In this document: piece by piece, positions 29,127 to 47,910 of the stretch | Layout of the letters: each line of letters starts with the position of its first letter | How positions within the stretch are numbered: position 1 is the first letter of the stretch | NCBI RefSeq assembly: GCF_947623445.1 | Contig: NC_135242.1 | Coordinates: 17,980,001 to 18,044,000, forward strand | Source: Clavelina lepadiformis | Taxonomy: Eukaryota; Chordata; Ascidiacea; Aplousobranchia; Clavelinidae | DNA: 64,000 nucleotides | Direction of reading: 5' to 3' | The notes under the pieces: generated by a model | The model's input: only the letters and a program-made list of their open reading frames with translations | Databases searched by the model: none | What the model was told of the DNA's origin: nothing | Translations under genes and position numbers: made by a program

Positions 29127-32100
29127 ATGACAAGTGACGTTGTAAGTATTACGAGTCCTAATGCTGTTAAAACTTAAACTAAAGCATCAGCAAAACTTAC
29201 CTAATTGTAAAATAGCCTACTTAGCTCAGTTTGTAGACATCATGTTGTACGTTTTCTTGTTCTTCAAAGTAGCTTTGTAATTCTAAACCAGGCTGAAAAG
29301 GACGAGAATCAAGATCGCGGCAACTGGGACAACAAAGCTGATTACCTTCTCTCGTGCATTGGCTATGCTGTCGGCTTAGGAAACGTTTGGAGGTTTCCAT
29401 ACCTCGCTTATAAAAATGGTGGAGGTATTAATAATGATTCAATAACCGAACTAAAGACAGATTTTTTATTTTTTGCCATTCTGCTAAATTCTGAAAACTG
29501 AGGTTTGTAGCTGAAAATCATTTGATCAAATAGATCACCTACTTTCGATGAAATAGTCACGTTCGGTAGTATTATCTGTGGTATAGTGCACGAAATCAAA
29601 TGTGTTTCTCATGCGACTGCACCTAACTTTCTCTTTATAGGGGCCTTTCTCATTCCTTACATTATTATGTTAGTCTTTGCCGGGCTTCCTATTTTTTTTA
29701 TGGAAGTATCCCTTGGCCAGTTTTCAAGCTTGGGGCCAACTGCTGTTTGGAAATTCAATCCAATACTTAAAGGTGGGATTTACCGGAAATAAAACTTAGT
29801 TAATTTGATCATTTTACAACTTTAATATGCATTGTTTAATTAGTATATAATACACAGCGTAATATTTCATGCGGATTGCTATTTGCTGCAGGTGTCGGAA
29901 TCTGTATGGTAGCACTGAGTGCAATGGTGGGCATCTATTACAATGTTATCATAGCTTATACGGTGTTCTACTTTTTCTCTTCTCTCACTGCTAATTTGCC
30001 TTGGGAGAAATGTGACAATTACTGGAATAACCCGTTAAGTTGTAGTACCAGCTTCAGTAAGTACGCCTAACTCAATTTTGAGCATATTTTTACCATTCTA
30101 AAGCAAAGCAACTTGGCTTTAAATTTTTCGGGCTTCTTTATATTCTTCATTCCCTTTTTGTCAGAAAACTCTTGCGCGGTTATTAACTTGACCGATGTGG
30201 TTCTTACCCCAAGTGAGGTGGATTTTGTGAATCTCGTCAACAACACTTTCTCTATTGATGACGTGTCGAAAAATGGTATTGTGCTTCTGATAACTAGACT
30301 GACATTACTCACAAATTTGTATCAGCGCACTGTACCGTAAAGTTGTTTTTTTCACAATTTTTTGACCAACTTTGTGGTATTTTAGTCGAACGGGAACAAG
30401 TGGAAGCGTTAACAGTCATAGCAGGTAGAGACAAAAGCTACTTTGGTTGTCCCGAATACGTCCCTTTCCGTGGTAGCAGCGCCAGTGAAGAATACTGGAA
30501 GTGAGTTAACAATGCTTTATAGCAGATTAAATTCAATTTCTTTGGGTCCCTATCCTTTCCGTCACATGTTTAACCTTCAAACGTTTGTTAGGGATTACGC
30601 CCTTAACTTGTCCGATGGAATAGATCCGGAATATACCGGTATCCCCAACACACATCTCGTGTTATCTTTGATCGTCGCTTGGATTGTTGTATTCTACAGT
30701 TTGATTCGTGGTATTAAGTCATCTGGAAAGGTAAGTATGGTTCGGCTTAAGACTCTCTGTGACATTTAATGGGTAGATTGCTCCCACTTCAGATGTTATT
30801 CTTCACCAGGTTGTGTATTTTACCGCCATTTTTCCCTACGTTGTACTTCTGATTCTGTTGATACGTGGTGCTACCTTGGAGGGTGCTTACGATGGTGTAC
30901 AATATTACATTGGTTATAAATCCAACTTTAACAAGCTTGCTGATGCCGAAGTATGTAGTGTTGCAGACAACAGTGCCTACAAAGACATTACTCCACTGAA
31001 GTTAAATGTTAATTTAAACTTCGCCTTTTTAGGTTTGGAAAGACGCTGCAACGCAGATTTTCTTTTCTCTCAGCGCTGCGTGGGGTGGACTGATCGCTTT
31101 ATCTTCGTACAACAAATTTGAAAACAACTGTTTCTACGACGCCCTTATAGTATGCTTTGTCAACTGCGCTACCTCTTTGTTTGCCGGATTTGCTATCTTT
31201 ACTGTATTGGGACATATGGCTTTGAAGTTGGGTCGAAGCGTAGACGAAGTCGTACAATCAAGTAAAATTTGAAATCAAGGTGTTCTTGTCTGCGGTTTTA
31301 AGTACTCACTCTTTGTTTTAAAACGCAGGTTTTGGTCTTGCTTTTATCGTTTACCCGGAAGCCATTACTCAACTTCCGGTTTCTCCGCTGTGGGCAATCC
31401 TGTTTTTCCTCATGCTGTTTACTCTTGGTTTGGACAGTCAATTTACTATTTTGGAAACTGTAAGCACAGCGATTATCGACAGCTTTCCACGACAGTTGAG
31501 AAGCCGCCGATGGCAACTAATGTTGTTCTTGTCTGTGATTCTCTTTTTGCTCGGGCTGACTTGTGTAACCGACGTAAGTGAAAATGAAACGAAAGCAAAT
31601 TGAATATTTAAACTATTTAAATTAAAACTAAAACTTCTTCCAGTCTGGACTTTACTGGGTGGATTTGATTGACCACTACGCGGCAGGCTGGGGTCTGCTC
31701 TTTGTGGCAGTAATGGAGCTCTTTGGTGTTTGCTACATCTATGGCGGTAACCGCTTCATAGAAGACGTGGAAATGATGATAGGGAAGAAACACTGGGCAT
31801 TCTGGATTTACTGGAGGGCATGCTGGTTTTTCATTTCCCCGCTTTTACTCACGGTAGATATTTTGAACAAAATAGAACTTGGCATGTGATTTGAACCTCG
31901 TTAACCGCAAGTTCTAACCAGCATTAGGTTCAGCGAATAATATTTGTATTTATTTTCTAATTTTAAATTTTATTTTCTAACTTTAGGCAATTCTTATTTG
32001 GTCACTGGTCACTTTTACCGGAAAGACGTACGACGATGATACAACCTACCCAGTATTCGCCAATGTTCTTGGATGGTTAATGATTGCGTTTGCCATAGCT

Positions 32101-32472
32101 TTTATTCCTTTGTTTGGTGTGATCACGATCATTAAGAAGGGTGGAAATATTTTCAAGGTATTTTGTGACTTTCGCTCTCGAAAAACTCGGTTGCTTTCTG
32201 TTATTTCACTGGTTAAAATATGCTGATTGCAGTTGCATTATTGGAAAAATGTAAGCAGCGGGTGTAATTGCAGAATATTATATTAGGCATCATCACCGGA
32301 CGGAGACTGGGGCCCTTACCTGAAAAAATTCCGCGGGTACCGCTACGCCGACATGGATGAGCCCCGAGAAGCCCTGGAGATTGCAAAAGAAAAGGAAGAC
32401 CGAGGCTATGACAAGGCTGCAGCAAATCCAGTTTACGAACATGATGACGACGTTGCGCAGACAAAATTCTAG
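29127..32472 (+). CDS. SLC6 sodium/chloride-coupled amino-acid transporter, copy B
   Basis: Tandem paralogue of the preceding transporter, 663 aa from thirteen exons: 29127-29141, 29292-29424, 29641-29772, 29892-30056, 30165-30275, 30386-30500, 30592-30730, 30810-30950, 31033-31261, 31329-31573, 31644-31853, 31987-32157, 32287-32472. Exons 3, 4, 8, 9, 10 and 11 have exactly the same lengths as in copy A (132, 165, 141, 229, 245, 210 nt) and phases agree throughout. It carries the same motifs: [41 protein letters not shown] and [19 protein letters not shown]. The extracellular loop after TM3 (exons 5-6) has diverged most, as in other SLC6 pairs. The short first exon MTSDV has good phase and an AAAATG context. 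The C-terminal tail is acidic. Substrate unknown; probably an amino acid. Confidence 0.93.
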
Positions 32473-33541: not shown

Positions 33542-33803
33542 ATGACAGGCAAAGTACTTAGTGTTCGATGGCGTTATATTTATGGAGCTGCTGGAAGTGT
33601 TGTGATGTTAATAACTGGTTTTGTTATGGGGGCACCATTCTGGAGACATACCTCACCAGAAGATTCGCTTCAATTGTACGCAACAGTATATGCGTTTGAT
33701 GGGTTGTGGATGTCGTGCATGTTTCAAGCTAGAAATATAGATTGTGTGCAGATGGGTTTCGGTTCAACTTACTACGGTTCAACTCCAGATTATCAACTTT
33801 ACA
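33542..33803 (+). CDS. Claudin alternative first exon 1
   Basis: Encodes MTGKVLSV, a first membrane span (YIYGAAGSVVMLITGFVMGA) and an extracellular loop with the claudin W-GLW-C-C signature: APFW, GLWMSC, then nine residues to C. It ends in phase 1 at a consensus donor (TACA/GTGAGT). No exon for membrane spans 2-4 follows before the next first exon, so it is read as spliced to the shared exons at 38089, giving a 311-aa protein. It could instead be a degenerate single exon; transcript data would decide. Confidence 0.72.
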
Positions 33804-34479
33804 GTGAGTATTTCAAAATGAATGTCGTGAATTACATTACTTACAAATTTGAAGAGATTTTTTGTTTACCAACTTTCATTCTAAAAAGAGGAATATGGGT
33901 ATGGAAGTAGTATTAACATTGTGTTTCATAATTTCGGGAATGTGATACACAAGTCTATTAACTTTTCCTGGTTGCAGTTTTACAGTATGTGAAATTTCTT
34001 ATAAGTCTGCACTACCATTATGAATCAACAAGTAAAAATCATGAGTTTACTACATACGTAACGTTTTCGCCATTTCGAATTTCAATTCGATTCTCTTTGA
34101 ATTGAAAAGTAAATAAAAAGCGTTGCCCAGCAGAAGAAATTCTTTGCAGAGTTAGGTTTTTGGATAACGAATACGCACATCAGTAATGATTTGAGAAAAA
34201 CCATCATCGTCATTCAAAGTGACGGCCACAAGCTAGAAATGGTGTTCGAACAGACATTACTTTCTATTTAGTTTACACATATAAAAGTATTCAGTGAATT
34301 GAATTCAAAATTAGCTGAGAGTACAGATTTTAAGCATCTTTCTTTCACTAATTTAGTATTTTAATAGAACAAATTAAAAACTGCAATTTTAGGAAAAGAT
34401 GGCAGTGGATCAACTCTTAATCTAAAGTCGATTTGTATAAAGTGCGTGTTGTAGTGTTTTTAGAAATATTTCAAGAAAA

Positions 34480-34789
34480 ATGGCGTATAATACAACGTCA
34501 TATGGCAAGCCTTCCAAGAGGATACTTTCAACTAAATTGCGAAATACAATATTTGGTCTGAGTTTTTTCTACTTGCTTCTATTGCTGTTTGTGTTGGCCG
34601 CACCTTATTGGAAAGTGTCTTCCTCCTGGGCCAGTGCCTCTGTAATGAGGAACATCTGGGGTTTTCAAGGCTTATTTTTGTCCTGCGTTAATACTCTGGG
34701 CGCAAGAGGAAATAATCAGTGCTATCAAATGGGTTTCAACAGCGGTTATTACACCAATTCAGCGGTTTACGCCACTAACGGAGTCAACG
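34480..34789 (+). CDS. Claudin alternative first exon 2
   Basis: Encodes a cytoplasmic start (MAYNTTSYGKPSKR), a hydrophobic span (FFYLLLLLFVLAAPYW) and the first loop with NIWGFQGLFLSC and NQCYQM, a variant of the GLW-C-C signature with Phe for the last Trp. It ends in phase 1 at CAACG/GTAAGT. It closely resembles exon 3 (shared APYWK, NIW-FQG and QCYQ), so the two look like a tandem exon duplication. Joined to the shared exons it predicts 327 aa. Confidence 0.75.
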
Positions 34790-35517
34790 GTAAGTCCACG
34801 GCTTCAATAGAATAAACTTCAGAATGTTAAGCAAAATCAGACGGAAACACATCGATATAGGTACACCGGAAAACTCTCACGATAAACCTGTCGATACTTT
34901 TTAGGTTTTCGCATAGTTTTGAAAGTTTGAGTTATAATTTGGACAATAATTTTGCATAACATTGAAAGTTTTATCTGAAAGGTTGGTTAGGATTCTTATT
35001 ATGGGTGGTTATAGATTATTCTGAAATTGGAGTTATTGTGAAGGGCCCAACCAGGCCATGGATTTAAACCCTAAGAAATTGAAAAGTAGGAATCTTATTA
35101 TGCAATTTCGATTGCTTGTTTCAATATTTTCGCACGTTTTAATCCCATGTTGTGAATACGTGTAAGCAAACGTGCTCATCATGTCTTCGTTGCTGGGATA
35201 TGCCAGTTCAGATCCGTTACTGTCTTGAGTGTCGTCGAACAATCGCAGAGAACATATAGTGGAGTTATGTATAGTCAGAGAACATATAGTCAGTTAATAT
35301 GAGTGGATAGAAACGCCAACAACTTTAAGCTTTGAGATGGTGATTTAAGAACTTTAAGATTTACTTTACAACTTAAGTAATTTAAAATTAGTCAGTAAAC
35401 ATAAAGTTAGAGCTGCATCGAGAAACGGTAAAAAATGATTTAATGTAAAGCTTTTTTGCAGATTTACAAACGAAAAAGATACTCTTGAGATTTAATCATA
35501 TAGTGGGTGGAATAGAT

Positions 35518-35845
35518 ATGAGTAGAGCCAAGTATGGTTATCACGATGAAGCTAGCGAACGTACAAAAGCAGAAGGTCCGGCTTCTGTCAACCTCCGCAG
35601 GGCTGCGCTGTTGCTCGGCACTCCCACTATATTTTTGATCGCCTTTGTAGTTGGCGCCCCCTACTGGAAGTCGAGCGCAATATGGGGGAGTATAACTACA
35701 ATTACAAATATATGGGAATTCCAAGGGATCTTTCTGCAATGTGTGAAAACTGGTGCAGGACAAGGGACTATCCAATGCTATCAAATATATACGACGATTG
35801 GAAATAGTGGTGGTCAACAGTCCGGTTATGATGCACTCATATATC
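35518..35845 (+). CDS. Claudin alternative first exon 3
   Basis: The first ATG (35518) gives MSRAKYGYHDEASERTK, then a membrane span around LLLGTPTIFLIAFVVGAPYW and a loop with NIWEFQGIFLQC and IQCYQ. It has Ile-Phe in place of the usual Leu-Trp. It ends in phase 1 at TATC/GTAAGT. Joined to the shared exons it predicts 333 aa, and the codon across the junction becomes CCC (Pro). The 1.75 kb to the next first exon holds no membrane-span exon. Confidence 0.75.
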
Positions 35846-37599
35846 GTAAGTGTACACATCCTACCTTATAAGATTTAAAAAAGAAAGAATTGGCTTACCG
35901 ACACTTCCTTGGTAAGAGTATATGATCAGGACAAACTGCTATCTTGCATGTTTGACCTGAACGCACGCAAAACAAAGAGTATATAGCCTAGCCTACTTCC
36001 AAACGAAGTGTAAATTTTGGAACTCACTTTAGGCCTACTCATAAATGACAAAAGACAAAAAACTATCGAATCAAAAGTCAAAAAGGCATGAAGGCTATAT
36101 GCCTAAAAAGAGAGAGTTATTTTACGATTAAAGAGTGTATATTTACATAAGGTATGTATCATTTATGTTACATTTTTATTGTTCTCTTTCAATAGCCACA
36201 ATGTTCTCTTTTATTGTTTCGGTTGCAACAAAAAGTCGTCAAATGTTTAAACTGGACACATCATTGAAATAATTGCGATTGTCTTGTTGAAAACATGTTA
36301 CAAATATTTCCAAAAATAGGAAAATTTCATCCTATGACATTTTCTTTTACAAGATAAGACAAGATTTATAAGTCTTTACAGTCGGTAATGTACGAAGTTG
36401 GCATTCCTCAGCTAAGGTACTAAACTCAACGCTAAGTGTAATCTTGATTTTTTGGCAGTATTAGACTATAATAATTTGTGTAATTAATTTATTCAAATAC
36501 ACCTTATTTGAGTGATATTATTATTGAAGAGGATATAATTTGAGCTTTATGTTGATTTCGTTACTATTGTTATTGTACGATTTCAACGCCTATTTAACAC
36601 TGCGTGGTACTGGAGTATTTTACTGGAGGTTCCTGCAATTTTCTAATGTAAAGAAGGTAACCATAAATATTTGTAAACACGAAAATAAGATTGTTGTGTA
36701 GAAAACAGACAAAAATATACAGTTCCAAAGTTAGAAGCGACAGATATGACGACAGCACTAAACAACAATAACATGGTGCTGTGCATAGTCATAGTCAATA
36801 TACTTTGCCGATAAACGATATAGGAGTATAGTCGTGACCTCTCTACAGTTTGGGCAACCAAGGCACAGAAACACCTTAACTGCTTTACGATTCTTCAGTA
36901 AAAGTGAGCAATGATTTAATAAGATGGTAAAGTACTCATACAGTATGCGCAAGGTTTTATACTTTACATAAGTCGCATATAGACAAATTATTGTTTTAGA
37001 GCTGAGATAGGCATTTACGTTCGAATAACCACTCCTCTGTAAAGCATTCGCCTTGTTGCAATTTTGAACCAAACGGGTAAATATGTGCTTAAGCCTACGC
37101 GTTTAATGGTGAGTTCATACCTACCCACATCATATAGCCTACACAGCTAGAAGAAGTTAAGTTTAACATTAAGAGTTAATGAGTAACCTAAAGTAGAGGA
37201 TAAATATTGCTTTTATCTTCTATGTATCCTTAGTTTCATCCTGAGCGCAACAGGTAGATATTGCAGTAAACGTAAGCCTACTAGTTGAAGAAATGTATAA
37301 CAAGTAGATGAAGTTTGGTATGTATTAAAAAAGCAAAGGTATTACCGATTTCATGAACATCAGATGTACCGGTTGTACGCTATTTTATATATATAGCTAT
37401 ACATTATGACAACAAAGCAAAGGATGAAATAACAAATGAGATTAGCAAAAGCTGAAAAGAAGATGGAAAGTATCAACATATTTTGAGATCAACTGATCAC
37501 ATGATTATATTAGTTCAAATATCTAACTTCTTTTTCGTCATACCACCAGAACAGAAACTAAAAAATATTTGAAAGTTAGTGTCGCCTTTGCTTTTTACA

Positions 37600-39718
37600 A
37601 TGGCAAGTCAAGGTTTAATCCATGCATCTGTGCTGCTTGGATTTGTTTCTATGATTTTAATCGTCGTTGTGGTTATCATGCCCGAATGGAGAGTAAATTC
37701 TGTAGTTGCGTCAGATGCATATATGAGAGGGGTTCGAGCCAAAGAGGGCTTGTGGGTTAGGTGCACAAATTACCAGAACAATTACTTCACGTGTGACATG
37801 TACGACACACCTATATTCGGGCTCGCGGGTAAGACAACATTTAACGATGTGTCTGACTTGCATAAGAATTTAACATGATCCGTTTGACTAAAATTATGTA
37901 ACAAATTATTATTTAACAAATAGAATGTCTTATAAAGCAGAGCAAGGCAGCATCATAAATAAAATAAAGTCTACTTAGACGTAAAGAATTATTAATCAAA
38001 GCTCTGCGAAATACTAGCAAATTAAGGCATGGTAGGTGACTTACAGTTTTTTTGTGCCCTGCGTTGTTAAACTTGCAATTTTTTACAGCCTACCTGAACG
38101 CTTTTCGTGCGTTGATGATAATCGCGTTACTCGCGTCAGTGGCAGGTGTGATATGTTCCGCACTTGGCATGAGATGCGCGACCATCATTGAGGAAGACTC
38201 AAAATCAAAAAGATGGACAATAATGATTGGAGGAGTATGCCACATTGTAGCAGGTTATTAGATACCCATCTTGTTTTGTCTCTTGGTTTCCTGTCAAAAT
38301 CATCATACTTATGTAAATAGTTAGGAACCACGTTGATCAGTGTATAACTGTTGCGCCATATAGCTATACGTTAATCATTGATATGTTACCTAGTTTCATC
38401 TTCTCAAAAGCTTTATTAAGTAATTTATATATCTGTAGAAAAAATGATGTTTAAAATACCAAAGTGTTTTCTTGTTGTGATAATATCTAATCTGTGAAAA
38501 TAAACTCCATGACAGCTTAAAGTCTGATTTCTGTTACACAGGTTCACTGACGGGAATATGTGTATCTTGGTACGCTGCCGAAGTCGTCCGCGAATTTAAC
38601 TACCCGTACAACCAACAGCAACTCAGTTATACTTTTGGTGCTTGCCTGTATCTTGGCTGGGTTGTCATGGTGCTTTCTTTGATATGTGGTATTCTGATGA
38701 CATGCTGTACCTGCTTTAACAAACCAGTGGGGAAAACAACGGCATATGAATATTCGTACAAGCCACCAGTAGCCCAAGAAAAGTATTCTTATCCCCGTAA
38801 GTATCACTAATAGTTACGTAATGTCATACAAAAGTTATCCGCTTCGTGTTTGTTACAAGTATGTATTGTTTACAAGTAAAAACTTTCACGACTGAAGGTT
38901 CCAAAACCAAAATTGACTTATACAAGCACCTGACTCCAATGCACATCACTACGGTCATAGCCTGTCTTATAGAAGACAAATGAAAGAAAACATGTTTTCG
39001 ATGACTATCTAACAAAAAGATATAATCGAAGCAACTTTACAACGACCAGAAATTCACGAGGTCAATTCCTGGAGTAGCCTACAGGTTGCGTCACCGATAA
39101 TAATTAACTAAATACCGGTTGAAGACAACACATTCCAAAACCGACTCAGAGATAAGAAAGTTAAACCATAGGAAAACATCAATACCATAAAACTTGTTTA
39201 CGTATACAATAAATACGTTATACCAGAAGCTATAAAAGCAGAAAGCTCTAGTTTAAATCACAACCCTACAGGAGATATTATACGAGTCATGAAACAAACC
39301 GCTAACAACTCTCCGCACAAAAAAAACCACACTTTAAAAAATTGAAAAAAGTTAAGATCCTAAGCATCCATTAACGATTTGGGAATTAAGACAAATTTTC
39401 TGTGTATTTAAACCGATCGCAAAGATATATTTCGATATTCTGTTTATGAACTTCTTTTTTTCAGCTCCCGCCGTTGAAACTTACAAACAAGACCCGATTT
39501 ACAAGGATCGTAGTGGTTATCGGAAATCCGACTATCGCCAATCCAAGCATAGCAACCATCACTCGCATCATTCTTCCCACTACTCCGGACACAGAGATCA
39601 TCGAGCTTCATCTTTCACTTCTAGCCACAGTCACCGCAGCAGCCTCCACCGCGACAGTCCCAAATCCAGTCACACTCGACATGACAGTGACATCGCGCGG
39701 GCAAGTGGTTTCGTTTGA
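37600..39718 (+). CDS. Claudin-family four-span junction protein (proximal first exon plus shared exons)
   Basis: Four-pass junction protein of the PMP22/claudin family, 300 aa in this form. Exons are 37600-37828 (first exon 4), 38089-38253, 38542-38796 and 39465-39718. Exon 4 gives TM1 and the first loop with MPEW, KEGLWVRC and a second Cys (FTC). The shared exons give TM2 (LMIIALLASVAGVICSALGM), TM3 (WTIMIGGVCHIVAGSLTGIC), the second loop and TM4 (ACLYLGWVVMVLSLICGIL), followed by CCTC. The cytoplasmic tail is long and rich in Tyr, then His, Ser and Arg, ending SGFV; a terminal Phe-Val may act like the claudin Tyr-Val PDZ ligand. Every upstream first exon ends in phase 1, matching the shared acceptor at 38089. 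The donor at 38254 (GTTATT) is weak. Confidence 0.85.
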
Positions 39719-42673: not shown

Positions 42674-45578
42674 GGGGAGACCGGGGTTAGTTGGAAAAAA
42701 TTTTAGGAAAATTTAAACCACCAAAATTCAGAATGATCTTCGAAACCTTTATCTAGTCTGGCATAATGACTACGATGATCTACAACTTCTTACAAAAGAC
42801 TGACCAGAAATTGTTACAGGTTTACGCACAAACTTTAATTATTCAGACATCAGTCACGTCTTCCAACTAACCCCGAAGCCGGGGCTTGTTGGAAAACCAC
42901 ATGGGGTTAGTTGGAAAATACATCGATTTGTTATATACAGTATTCAAAAGTGTCTGTTCTTTGAATGTTAGTTAATCAATCTATTGTGGATTGTAGCCCG
43001 ACAAGTCAACAGGGAAGACAAATTTCTGTTGACAGCGTTTCGTTCCTTTTCTGTTTAAAGGAACAGGCAATTTGAACACAATGTCTTTTAAATTTTGAGT
43101 GAATTCCGATTCGTCAGTGTCCATAGGAAAAATAAACAAGGGGTGTTCACTCACTAATTTAGAGTGACTGGAGCGCTTCAAAAATTTGAAGGTTACGTCC
43201 CCATCTTCAAAAACATCACTTACTTGTCCAACGTAGTACTGCACACTTTTTCTTGCAGAAAATTTGACAAGTGCAAATTCACCTACTTTAATGTCACTTG
43301 GTTGATTAACCTCTGTCATTTCTTCATCGTCTGTTGTACTCCCGTCTGAGCAGTCCTCCTCATCCGATAAGAGTGGTGGCGGTGCTTTGGCAGAGTCAGA
43401 CTTTGAAGCATTTATCAAGCGTTTACAAATTTTCTTACTTGTCTTTTTCTTTTTTTCATCCTGTGCCATAAGTTCCTGTTTTTCAGGGGTGTCAGTTAAA
43501 ATCCTGGTTCTTCCACGATTTATGTTGGATTTCCTCTTTCTGGGAGCAGCTTTTGTAAATGGCCTTATGCTTTCAGGTGTGACATTCACAGGACAATCAA
43601 TTGTTGATGATAAAGACCTACCTGATATTTGGTGTTGTTGGCTGGTTGCTTGCTGGTCTGTTGGTTGTGTGCTGGCACTGTCAGCAACATTTATCGGGAT
43701 AGGCCTGTCAGTCACATCAGAAGGCAGAAATTCTACATCCGTGAAAATGTCACTGTCGAATGGATAGATCCCAGCAACCTTGAACCCTGATTGTATGTTT
43801 ACCGGTGTGAATGCTCTGGGGAAACTTCTCCCTACCATATCAGGGATGTCATAAATAGTCATTGTTGTTCCTCGATTTTCTTTCATCCAGCAGTCACAAG
43901 CACTGTTGTAATAACGTTTGAAAGGCCCATAAACAGCCCTATCTAGCGGCTGCAGCTTATGAGAGCAGTGGGGTGGAAATGAGAGTAAGACAATGCCACG
44001 GTCTTTGGCATAATCAATGACTTCCAGGCTGATGTGGCTCTGATGATTGTATAGAAGCAATAGCACTTTGTCTTCATGGGTTGGTCTAACATGAGACACA
44101 AAGTGTTTCATCCAGACAAGAAAATTCTCTGCGGTCATACAGCCACTTGGATGTGCTCTCCCAATGGAGCCAGTTGGAGCACCATTTTTAATAAAGTGAT
44201 CCTTGTAGTGTACCCTTGGAAATATGAACATGGGTGGGATTGCATTTCCAGTTGCACTGACAGCACAACAAAGTGTGACAAGTTGCCCTCTCTCTCCAGA
44301 AACAATAGCACCAACTTGCTTAGCACCTGTTGCTGCGACAATCTTTCTTGGTTTCTGCACAGTGGTACAGCCAGTTTCATCTACATTCCAGATCTTGTCT
44401 GGTGTAAATCCATCCCTTTCCAACACTGAGGCAAATCTATCATAGAAAGTTTTAACATTATGCCTGTTAAAACTGGTAGCACGACTCAGTGATGTGCTTT
44501 CTGGTGTTCTCAAGGACAAGCTGGGATGTCGTTTCATGAAAGCGGAAAGCCAGTCGCTCCCAGCCTGCTTTGCTACAGCCCAAGAGCTTGGTATTTTTAG
44601 ATTAACTTTGGTAGCATATTCATATGCCAATGATTTTACTTCACTAGTGGACAGTCCATAATATAAAGTTGATGATTTAAGTAAATATTCCACCAAAAGA
44701 AGCTCTTGGTTACTATCAAATACTGATCTATTATTGAAATATCCATATCTCTTCAAAGATATTTCTTCTATATCATCATTCTGGTTAGAGTGTTCCTTGC
44801 GATATTTCAAACAGTACCTTCGCAAAGTCACATGAGGAATGCCATATTCCTTACCAACTTTGTGGCAAGGTCTTTTCTGCATTAACACCTGTTTCACTGC
44901 CTTTTCCATTACAAACTTTGGAGTAGATCCACGTTGAGTTTTGCGTTTATACTCGCGCATACTTTTAATTAAAAAGTGTAGCTATTTATCGACCTGTATA
45001 AAATAACAAGTTCCAACTTAACTGTACGAGGCTGTAAAAGTAAAAGGTATGAATTCCATCAAGCATTAATGAAAGAAATTTTTACTCATATGATTTTACT
45101 CATATAATACTGTTTAAACTTTAAAGCAAGTGTTTAGCAAAAGTTATTCATAATTGGGGTTAGTTGAAACATTTTCCAACTAACCCCATTCAAATTTTTC
45201 CAACTAACCCCGTATGCACATGGGAGTGAAAACTTACTTTTTATGTAGCCACCAAAGCAGGTAATTTAATTGCCTCTGCCTTTTCTGGTACCATGGCACC
45301 TACGGTCAATATAGACTAATGAACTTTCACTAATCTCTCTAGAGCACTATGTTACACGATATTTACCAACAAGCTCGAATTTTAGTTCAAAGTGTAAAAA
45401 ACAGAAAAACGTGTACCACTCTTATGTTTTTGCTCTGAGACCAATAAAATTACCATGGCGAATAGATAACATCGTTGTCAATCACTAAGGGACAGTAAAG
45501 ATTTAAAAAAATGTTCAGGGAGTACTAAAACAGCGATTTTTCAACTAACCCCGTTTTCCAACTAGCCCCGGTCTCCCC
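42674..45578 (-). mobile_element. Near-complete pogo-like DNA transposon
   Basis: It begins GGGGAGACCGGGGTTAGTTG (42674) and ends with its reverse complement (CAACTAG..., to 45578), one mismatch over the first 24 bp. It is flanked by TA on both sides (42672-42673 and 45579-45580), the TA duplication of the Tc1/mariner-pogo superfamily. Copies of a GGGGTTAGTTGGAAAA-type motif recur inside both ends (about 42861-42876, 42881-42896, 42903-42918, 45155-45168, 45172-45187, 45194-45212 and 45541-45553), probably transposase-binding repeats. One long intronless transposase gene lies on the minus strand. Confidence 0.92.
42981..44960 (-). CDS. Pogo-like transposase (DDE_1), second catalytic Asp replaced by Tyr
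   Basis: An uninterrupted 659-aa protein. Residues 15-55 form a Psq-like helix-turn-helix (KQVLMQKRPCHKVGKEYG, PHVTLRRYCLKY). A linker with DWLSAFMKRHP and RTPESTSLSRATSFN precedes the DDE_1 catalytic domain, which starts near residue 185. First acidic residue D194 is in WNVDETG and the third, D340, is in HKLQPLD. The second motif normally reads LLLDNH-SH, but here residue 304 is Tyr (LLLLYNHQSH, codon TAC at 44051-44049), one base from GAC. The C-terminal 300 residues are basic/acidic low-complexity followed by a barrel-like stretch (VGEFALVKF, YYVGQVSDVFEDGDV) that may be Tudor-like. The ORF is intact, so decay is recent, but catalysis is expected to be lost. Forward-strand open frames across this region are its shadows. 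Confidence 0.92.
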   Translation of the reverse strand: MREYKRKTQRGSTPKFVMEKAVKQVLMQKRPCHKVGKEYGIPHVTLRRYCLKYRKEHSNQNDDIEEISLKRYGYFNNRSVFDSNQELLLVEYLLKSSTLYYGLSTSEVKSLAYEYATKVNLKIPSSWAVAKQAGSDWLSAFMKRHPSLSLRTPESTSLSRATSFNRHNVKTFYDRFASVLERDGFTPDKIWNVDETGCTTVQKPRKIVAATGAKQVGAIVSGERGQLVTLCCAVSATGNAIPPMFIFPRVHYKDHFIKNGAPTGSIGRAHPSGCMTAENFLVWMKHFVSHVRPTHEDKVLLLLYNHQSHISLEVIDYAKDRGIVLLSFPPHCSHKLQPLDRAVYGPFKRYYNSACDCWMKENRGTTMTIYDIPDMVGRSFPRAFTPVNIQSGFKVAGIYPFDSDIFTDVEFLPSDVTDRPIPINVADSASTQPTDQQATSQQHQISGRSLSSTIDCPVNVTPESIRPFTKAAPRKRKSNINRGRTRILTDTPEKQELMAQDEKKKKTSKKICKRLINASKSDSAKAPPPLLSDEEDCSDGSTTDDEEMTEVNQPSDIKVGEFALVKFSARKSVQYYVGQVSDVFEDGDVTFKFLKRSSHSKLVSEHPLFIFPMDTDESEFTQNLKDIVFKLPVPLNRKGTKRCQQKFVFPVDLSGYNPQ

Positions 45579-46306: not shown

Positions 46307-47910
46307 CAGTGGCGTAGCAGCCACCTGGCGGTTCTGGCTCTGCGCCAGGGGCGGCAGGCTGCAAGGGGGCGGCAAAATGAGGCTGCACATTGCACACAGC
46401 ACGAGAATTTAAAAAAAAATGGAGCGGTAAACAAGCTATTTTGTTACAATTTGGTCCCGCTGACCAAGAAAACTGTGGAAGGTGAACCAGTCCTGGGCAT
46501 TTAAACGTTTAATTGTAACCTTTTAAGTTGTTATTGATTGTAAACGTTTAAATGACAAGTGTTAATTTAGACTCGAAAATGAAACATGTCAAAGAGAGTG
46601 GAGCTTTTTTTAAAAAGAAGAGAAAGCAAGAGAAGCAGAATTTAAAAAGCACAAGGGAGCTATGCTAAAATTTGTAATCTCTTCTGGTTCAAATGTTTCT
46701 TTAACATTACCAGAGAAAGATTCAAATGAAAACCCAGACAATAACGCTGAGCTCCAGAGAGATACTGAAAATATCAGCTTATCAGCAGAAACGCAAGAAA
46801 CAGGGTCTATCAAAAGTAATGCCAATGAAATCAATTATGCATTGCCAGTTATAGATGGAGACGAATGTGAAAATAACGACGAAGCAGTTGCAGTAGTCAA
46901 CAATTTGCCCAATGATGTGGCCTCTTGGCCTGAAGCTATAGATCACCATTTGTATGGATGAAGAGCGAAAAAAGTGGAAAGCAATTTTAGAAAGCGTTGT
47001 TGATGTCATATTATTTCTAAGTAAGCAAAACCTTCCTTTTCGAGGACATCGTGAAGCTTTTGAATCCAACAACCAAGGGAATTTTTTACAGACCGTGAAG
47101 CTTCTGGAAAAATATAGTCCCGTAATCATCAAATACCTTTCTGATATTCGTATTTCTACGAAGATGACCACTACTTATCTTTCTCCCACTATTCAAAATG
47201 AGCTTATTTTGCTTCTCAGTAAAAAAGTCAAAAACATCGTTCTTGAAGAGGTGCGCGAAGCTAAATATTTTGCGATTATGTGCGACAGTACTCCGGACGT
47301 ATCACATACTGATCAAATGACTCTTATAGTCAGATATGCAATAATCAAAAACAGTATTGCCCAACTGAAGGAATTGTTTTTGAATTTCTTTCCGTTGAGC
47401 GGAAAAACGACAGCTGAAATTTCTCAATCTATTCTAGATGAACTTGAACCAAACAACCATGATGTGATGATGTGTAGGGGACAAGGCTACGACAACGCAT
47501 CTACTATGTCGGGAATTCATACTGGAGTTCAGCAAAAAATCAAAAACATAAATCCAAAATTCATAAATCCAAGACATTACACGTTCAAAAACTTGATTTT
47601 GAAGATATTATCGCTGATTTTGCTTCGGCGAAAGCTCGAAAAGTTCAATTTTGAGGCGGCTATTGATCTTTTATTTGCCTAATACATTTGTTCTCCATTT
47701 TTTGTCTTTTATTTTAGGTCTTAACGTTGAGACAGTGAGGCTTCTTTCTCAAGCAATATAGAACTTCTGAGACGCGGCACATTATCTATAATTATTTTTA
47801 TTGAATAGATTGCGTGAACATGAAACTATACTTCAAAATTTGCTGCAGTCTACATAGGGCGGCATTTTCAACGAAAGCCAGGGGCGGCAGCATATGCTCC
47901 TACGCCACTG
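46307..47910 (+). mobile_element. Internally deleted hAT transposon, 8-bp TSD
   Basis: The ends are CAGTGGCGTAG (46307-46317) and CTACGCCACTG (47900-47910), inside the exact 8-bp duplication GTTGGAAG (46299-46306 and 47911-47918). The element is 1604 bp and carries parts of a hAT transposase gene, shorter than autonomous relatives. GGGGCGGCA repeats lie just inside both ends (46348-46356 and 47880-47888). Confidence 0.92.
46563..47682 (+). pseudogene. hAT transposase remnant (ZMYM/DUF4371-type)
   Basis: N-terminal pieces occur in two frames (ESGAFFKKKRKQ, then KKHKGAMLKFVIS), showing a frameshift. The stretch to SWPEAIDHHLYG stops at 46961. The TTF-type zinc-finger section expected next is missing. 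A 242-aa open frame from 46954 then covers NLPFRGHREAFES, YFAIMCDSTPDVSHTDQ (first catalytic Asp) and CRGQGYDNASTMSG (second Asp). After INPKF the conserved continuation is gone and the tail KFNFEAAIDLLFA does not complete the domain. Two internal deletions plus a frameshift make it non-autonomous. It resembles transposases that gave rise to ZMYM/ZBED-like host genes, by family memory. Confidence 0.88.

What the first reader, a model, noticed from the sequence alone, without database searches (positions are those of the whole stretch)
33542..39718. Claudin locus with four candidate alternative first exons feeding one shared body
Four separate exons (33542, 34480, 35518, 37600) each encode TM1 plus the W-GLW-C-C first loop. 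All four stop in phase 1 at good GT donors, and no TM2-4 exons occur between them. One shared set (38089, 38542, 39465) supplies TM2-4 and the tail. First-loop identity sets pore charge and pairing in claudins, so swapping this exon would make several paracellular specificities from one gene. Vertebrate CLDN10 and CLDN18 use alternative first exons in a similar way; four in a tunicate-like genome would be notable. Exons 2 and 3 look like a recent exon duplication.
Basis: partly seen in the sequence, partly recalled or inferred. Interest (0 to 1): 0.78.

Follow-up and report, generated by a model that had tools for sequence, protein, structure and literature searches.

The report
Sea-squirt claudin with swappable first exons
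A sea-squirt gene for a cell-junction pore protein seems to carry four interchangeable front ends on one shared body, so one gene could make four kinds of gap-sealing or ion-passing protein; two sister genes appear to take the same idea further, but RNA proof is still missing.

Summary
Four exons (33542, 34480, 35518, 37600) each encode a claudin-like TM1 plus first loop, all end in phase 1 at GT donors, and join in frame to one shared set (38089, 38542, 39465). A profile made only from first exons of other loci of the genome picks exactly these four out of 2,108 window ORFs (E 5e-21 to 6e-7; next 0.84). Exons 34480 and 35518 are not a recent duplication: 40% protein identity, 66% of third positions changed, no shared DNA. 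The first loops differ in net charge (-3, +3, 0, +1), recalling CLDN10a/b. Beyond the finding, two sister loci carry two and four first exons and also two TM2 and two TM3 exons before one tail: 8 of 8 and 16 of 16 combinations are in frame. Three other places show repeated E1-E2-E3 sets instead. Against: alone, three of the four first exons have no Pfam claudin match. Best reading: a claudin gene with variable first exons, in a genome where claudin exon arrays recur. No transcript was examined; exon use, promoters and pore properties are inferred.

The parts
33542..33803 (+). E1a: alternative first coding exon (TM1 + first extracellular loop), phase 1 donor ACA|GTGAGT; loop net charge -3 (K+R minus D+E)
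34480..34789 (+). E1b: alternative first coding exon, donor ACG|GTAAGT; loop net charge +3, no D or E in the loop
35518..35845 (+). E1c: alternative first coding exon, donor ATC|GTAAGT; loop net charge 0
37600..37828 (+). E1d: first coding exon nearest the body (260-nt intron) and the most claudin-like of the four; loop net charge +1; perhaps the ancestral type (inference); donor CGG|GTAAGA
38089..38253 (+). Shared exon 2: end of first loop and TM2; phase 1 acceptor and phase 1 donor (CAG|GTTATT, 88.6 percentile)
38542..38796 (+). Shared exon 3: TM3, second loop, TM4, start of tail; phase 1 at both ends
39465..39718 (+). Shared last coding exon: His/Ser-rich cytoplasmic tail ending SGFV, then TGA

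Best explanation
This is one claudin gene with four alternative first coding exons (E1a-E1d) and one constant body (E2-E4). Each first exon supplies the start codon, TM1 and nearly all of the first extracellular loop; its phase-1 donor joins the phase-1 acceptor at 38089. I infer that each transcript uses one first exon, that each has its own transcription start or 5' leader, and that the choice sets the loop charge of the claudin and hence which ions pass or are held back. The set arose by old, in-place duplication of the first exon, with E1d perhaps the ancestral type (inference). Shown: sequence, phase, open frames, one E2 and one E3 copy in the window, recurrence of exon arrays at sister loci. 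Inferred: transcription, exon choice, tissue use, pore properties. The confidence is for the shared-body, alternative-first-exon layout; whether all four are used is rival 2, and how the choice is made is rival 3, both of which could hold within it.
For: All four exons keep ATG, frame, phase-1 donor, a W-to-first-Cys spacing of 25 residues and a cysteine pair, although third codon positions differ at 66-72% and second positions at 36-61% (six pairs). A profile without window rows finds just these four. One E2 and one E3 in the window. The isoforms score 68.1, 58.3, 54.6 and 77.0 bits against Pfam PMP22_Claudin, the body alone 51.8. In the PDB sequence search the top match of each of E1a, E1b and E1c alone is a claudin, though not significant (E 0.26, 0.059, 0.063); the E1 profile, which includes window rows, matches claudin-19 at 4.4e-11. 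Sister loci C2:24.51M and C5:15.54M have 2 and 4 first exons plus 2 E2 and 2 E3 copies with one tail; 8 of 8 and 16 of 16 combinations are clean. Where E1-E2-E3 sets are repeated as wholes (C3:21.365M, C8:14.06M) the order is E1-E2-E3-E1-E2-E3 instead.
Against: No transcript, start-site or junction data. Alone, E1a, E1b and E1c have no Pfam claudin match at E up to 10, and E1d alone scores below the cut-off (21.3 of 26.7 bits), behind a Clc-like model (22.9 of 24.9); E1b and E1c add only 6.5 and 2.8 bits to the body's score. The Pfam search of the genome marks only the TM3 exon of this gene. E1a and E1c donors lack G at -1. E1a against E1c shows little codon-position contrast (0.57, 0.61, 0.72). 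TATA-like words within 400 nt lie upstream of E1b and E1d only, and do not show a promoter. The own-genome search scores only the best candidates, so a very divergent body exon could be missed. No structure prediction finished.
Confidence: 0.8

Rival explanations
1. Remnants of tandem whole-gene duplication: E1a-c are first exons of former claudin genes whose body exons were lost, so they are dead or decaying.
For: E1-E2-E3 sets do stand next to one another elsewhere in this genome (C3:21.365M, C8:14.06M), and C3:21352099 is an E1 copy that has lost a loop cysteine. The Pfam support of E1b and E1c is slight.
Against: No E2 or E3 relic was found between the four exons. All four stay open for 76-109 codons; such runs are open at 0.9-2.5% of positions of this window, both strands. 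Phase, spacing and cysteines are kept despite many third-position changes.
Confidence: 0.12
2. Only some of the four exons are used (for example E1d plus one other); the gene is in effect a two-isoform claudin like CLDN10 or CLDN18.
For: E1d is the most claudin-like; E1a and E1c have the weaker donors.
Against: All four keep coding and splicing features.
Confidence: 0.25
3. One shared upstream 5' leader (cis-spliced, or a trans-spliced leader) is joined to any of the four exons, so the choice is made by splicing rather than by separate promoters.
For: E1a has an acceptor-like TTTCAG one base before its ATG. Trans-splicing of leaders in tunicates is recalled, not tested here.
Against: E1d has no AG within about 20 bases before its ATG. 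Start sites cannot be told from sequence here.
Confidence: 0.25

Closest known systems
Vertebrate CLDN10 (exons 1a/1b)
   Same: Alternative first exons swap TM1 and most of the first loop on a common body; claudin-10a and -10b form anion and cation channels (PMC6862131, passages read).
   Different: Two major first exons against four here; no orthology was tested; no function shown here.
Vertebrate CLDN18 (18.1/18.2)
   Same: Two alternative first exons replace the N-terminal 69 residues (PMC11464258, passages read).
   Different: Two exons with, in that paper's words, highly homologous products; here four, 23-40% identical pairwise.
UGT1, GCNT2 and protocadherin clusters
   Same: Several variable first exons in tandem feeding constant exons (PMC1885805, abstract and outline read).
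   Different: Unrelated proteins; that abstract calls the variable/constant organisation of Ugt1, Gcnt2 and Ugt2a vertebrate-specific. A promoter per exon is not shown here.
Dscam exon arrays
   Same: Sister claudin loci C2 and C5 have more than one copy at several exon positions, so choices could multiply (Dscam: PMC1397879, search listing only).
   Different: Two to four copies per position; Dscam has four arrays with potentially 38,016 isoforms (same listing). Mutual exclusion is not shown here; of the four E2 and E3 pairs tested only C2 E3x+E3y is barred by frame.
Other claudin loci of the same genome (C2:24.51M, C5:15.54M, C3:21.35M, C8:14.06M)
   Same: C2 and C5 have the same E1/E2 and E2/E3 cut points in phase 1; C3 seems to as well (by eye).
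   Different: C2 and C5 also duplicate E2 and E3 and have a further cut before TM4; the C3:21.365M pair and C8 are repeated E1-E2-E3 sets.

Membership tests
Claudin (PMP22_Claudin, PF00822) | Profile match over the curated cut-off for the spliced protein | tested here: met
   68.1, 58.3, 54.6 and 77.0 bits against a cut-off of 26.7; but the body alone already has 51.8, and no first exon alone reaches the cut-off
Claudin (PMP22_Claudin, PF00822) | First-loop motif W...GLW..C...C (motif recalled) | tested here: met
   Met in full by E1a and E1d; E1b and E1c have GLF and GIF in place of GLW with both cysteines kept, with 11 residues between them instead of 8-9
Claudin (PMP22_Claudin, PF00822) | Best match among solved structures is a claudin | tested here: met
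   Queries without the last exon: E1d isoform, claudin-4 at 8.9e-26; E1a isoform, claudin-9 at 7.3e-20; all 11 matches of each at E 0.001 or better are claudins. The E1b and E1c isoforms were not searched whole
Claudin (PMP22_Claudin, PF00822) | C-terminal PDZ-binding end (-YV, recalled) | tested here: inconclusive
   Window gene ends SGFV; the C2 and C5 genes end in YV
Claudin (PMP22_Claudin, PF00822) | Tight-junction localisation and paracellular function | not testable with these tools
   needs experiment
Gene with alternative first coding exons | Two or more start-codon exons with the same phase into one shared acceptor | tested here: met
   4 of 4, phase 1
Gene with alternative first coding exons | No private body exons between them | tested here: met
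   no E2 or E3 match between them
Gene with alternative first coding exons | Transcripts joining each first exon to the shared exon | not testable with these tools
   polyA RNA-seq run ERR10908613 is listed for the species but is not held here
Gene with alternative first coding exons | A separate promoter for each first exon | not testable with these tools
   TATA-like words upstream of E1b and E1d only; not evidence of function

The most novel reading that the evidence does not exclude
Claudin genes of this ascidian are a small combinatorial system: variable first exons at three, perhaps four, loci and, at two of them (C2, C5), alternative TM2 and TM3 exons as well, so that first-loop and second-loop identities are chosen independently. 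If one copy is taken at each position, the window gene could give 4 claudins, C2 8 and C5 16, a multi-position layout in a junction protein that resembles Dscam or UGT1 more than any claudin gene I know of (recall).
Probability: 0.5. Interest if true: 0.78.

Novelty: new variant of a known kind. Interest (0 to 1): 0.62.

Why it matters
Vertebrates diversify tight junctions mostly by many claudin genes (at least 24 in mammals; PMC6862131), with exon choice in CLDN10 and CLDN18. A tunicate (sister group of vertebrates, recalled) that diversifies by exon arrays within a gene would be a second route to the same end and a natural set of loop swaps on one scaffold: four loops (net charge -3 to +3) on an identical body would let the question of how far the first loop alone sets pore selectivity be tested directly.

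Tried and rejected
Recent duplication of exons 34480/35518: rejected. The C6:1.37-1.39M cluster of claudin-family hits was opened as a possible second array; three PMP22-like segments on both strands were seen in a motif scan of 30 kb; I judged them separate genes and did not annotate them. The E1 copies at C3:21352099 and 21354888 were first read one base out of frame; in the right frame both have a phase-1 donor, and one lacks the first loop cysteine. A first run of the C2/C5 isoforms put the tail exon one base off and gave false stops; corrected (C2, 8 of 8; C5, 16 of 16; the C5 tally reads 0 of 16 because the last exon was one base too long). An E2 alignment with one row out of frame was replaced. 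Trees of E1, E2 and E3 are weakly resolved: for E1 only C3x+C3y and C5x+C5y have strong support; E1a-c group at 82/84, with a long E1a branch that makes its place unsure. The bacterial-type promoter scan says nothing about this genome. Claudin-like hits at C6:1.91M, C6:19.60M and C2:8.63M and further Pfam hits were not opened, so this is no full census. C3p was left out of the nine-row profile.

Literature: searches (open-licence PMC only; I saw listings, several cut short, e.g. 12 of 107) showed no paper that describes tunicate claudin exon arrays. Subscription papers and Ciona gene models were not seen, so this is no proof of absence. Ascidia mentula was considered as the species; two of the window genome's chromosome lengths were sought in its paper and not found.
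Full report
WHAT IS THERE. The window is contig C3, 17980001-18044000, of a held assembly of 209.06 Mb in 95 contigs. Contig lengths seen for C2, C3, C5, C6 and C8 (26.53, 25.73, 24.62, 20.77, 19.51 Mb) agree within 0.01 Mb with chromosomes 2, 3, 5, 6 and 8 of Clavelina lepadiformis kaClaLepa1.1 (26.54, 25.74, 24.62, 20.77, 19.51 Mb; PMC10884593, passages read). The published total is 210.1 Mb in 102 scaffolds, slightly more than the held copy; the identification rests on the five lengths. On the + strand, about 1.3 kb after the last tested segment of an SLC6-type transporter (Pfam SNF in three of three segments tested, the last below its cut-off), stand four exons at 33542, 34480, 35518 and 37600, then three at 38089, 38542 and 39465.

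OBSERVATION. Each of the four starts with ATG, encodes TM1 and the first loop, and ends in phase 1 at a GT donor. Joined to 38089-38253, 38542-38796 and 39465-39718 they give four clean proteins of 311, 327, 333 and 300 aa. Against Pfam PMP22_Claudin the isoforms score 68.1, 58.3, 54.6 and 77.0 bits; the body alone scores 51.8, so E1d and E1a add clearly, E1b and E1c little. Alone, E1a, E1b and E1c have no claudin match in Pfam at E up to 10 and E1d stays below the cut-off. To lessen circularity I built a profile from nine first exons of other loci only and ran it over all 2,108 window ORFs of at least 20 aa: E1d, E1b, E1c and E1a come out at 5.2e-21, 3.4e-12, 6.4e-10 and 5.9e-7, the next at 0.84. 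Those loci had been found with window proteins, so some dependence remains. Each of E1a, E1b and E1c alone has a claudin as top match in the PDB sequence set, none significant (E1d was not searched alone). E1, E2 and E3 profiles over the whole window give four E1, one E2 and one E3, with three further weak rows (i-E 0.067-0.58).

ARE THE UPSTREAM EXONS ALIVE? Protein identity among the four is 23-40% in six pairwise alignments; third codon positions differ at 66-72%, second at 36-61%. The contrast is clear for E1b/E1c (0.52, 0.36, 0.66) and slight for E1a/E1c (0.57, 0.61, 0.72). After that much change, open frames of 76-109 codons, phase, the W-to-first-Cys spacing of 25 in all four and the cysteine pair are still kept; in this window a run of that length is open at 0.9-2.5% of positions. 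No shared DNA is left between E1b and E1c (blastn self-comparison; repeat search), so the 'recent duplication' is rejected. E1d is closest to first exons of the C2 locus (41 and 40%) and may be the ancestral type; E1a-c group together with modest support (82/84) and a long E1a branch.

SISTER LOCI. Searches of the genome with single claudin proteins and a profile scan of the window and seven fetched loci (L050-L056) show the following. C2:24.512-24.519M: first exons x, y; TM2 exons x, y; TM3 exons x, y; one tail exon ending NTEYV. All 8 of 8 combinations are clean. Joining E3x to E3y breaks the frame (3 stops), because they enter in phase 1 and leave in phase 0, and 48 nt part them; joining E2x to E2y does not break it. 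C5:15.538-15.548M: four first exons (one with an inner intron), two TM2, two TM3 and a two-exon tail ending TKTEYV; 16 of 16 combinations are clean, and tandem inclusion of both E2 or both E3 would stay in frame. In the six first exons of C2 and C5 the W-to-first-Cys spacing is again 25. C3:21.352-21.370M: two near-identical first exons lie about 10-13 kb upstream of two E1-E2-E3 sets; one of the two lacks the first loop cysteine. C8:14.057-14.062M has the order E1-E2-E3-E1-E2-E3 (the last E3 match is weak, i-E 0.19), and C6:19.579-19.582M one set followed by a further first exon (several weak matches); splice joins were not tested at C3, C8 and C6. Repeated sets thus show a different order from the grouped arrays, and a single tail after two TM3 exons leaves alternative splicing as the natural reading at C2 and C5. 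The genome search scores only the best candidates and several claudin-like hits were not opened, so this is no full census.

HOW IT WORKS, MOST LIKELY. Shown: architecture and coding capacity. Inferred: one first exon per transcript, chosen by start site or leader splicing; the choice sets the loop. Net charge of the loop from the TM1 tryptophan to the donor (K+R minus D+E) is -3 (E1a), +3 with no acidic residue (E1b), 0 (E1c) and +1 (E1d). In CLDN10 the two first exons give oppositely selective pores, and claudin-10a has seven positive and one negative residue in this loop (PMC6862131, passages). By analogy E1a would favour cations and E1b anions; this is untested. Whether each exon has its own promoter cannot be told: TATA-like words within 400 nt precede E1b and E1d only.

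KNOWN OR NEW. Claudins with alternative first exons are known (CLDN10, CLDN18; passages), and loci with many variable first exons are known (UGT1, GCNT2, protocadherins; PMC1885805, abstract and outline). Four coding first exons in a tunicate claudin, and arrays at further exon positions in sister genes, did not appear in the listings of the searches made (open-licence library). I rate it a new variant of a known kind. The main weakness is the lack of any RNA evidence.

Noticed in passing
L050 (C2:24512544-24518996): Claudin locus with two first exons, two TM2 exons, two TM3 exons and one tail exon; 8 of 8 combinations in frame; E3x and E3y are 48 nt apart and frame-incompatible in tandem.
   Followed up: yes
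L053 and L051 (C5:15538670-15547947): Claudin locus with four first exons, two TM2, two TM3 and one shared tail; 16 of 16 combinations in frame.
   Followed up: yes
L054 (C3:21352099-21352312 and 21354888-21355101): Two near-identical claudin first exons about 10-13 kb upstream of two E1-E2-E3 sets; one has lost the first loop cysteine.
   Followed up: partly
38253/38254, and E2 ends in L050, L051, L052: TM2-exon donors at the three array loci depart from GTRAGT in 5 of 5 cases (GTTATT, GTACCC, GTAGAA, GTTAGT, GTTAGA); at the repeated sets of C3 one departs (GTGGGC) and one does not (GTAAGT).
   Followed up: no
42981-44981 (-): Open 666-aa frame with a DDE_1 transposase domain, downstream of the claudin gene.
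   Followed up: partly
46942-47679 (+): 246-aa open frame matching DUF4371; such frames often come from transposons (recalled).
   Followed up: no
35464-35865 (-): An open antisense frame of 133 aa over E1c; probably incidental.
   Followed up: no
29840-32223 (+): Segments of an SLC6-type sodium:neurotransmitter symporter upstream of the claudin gene (three of three tested match Pfam SNF, the last below its cut-off).
   Followed up: partly
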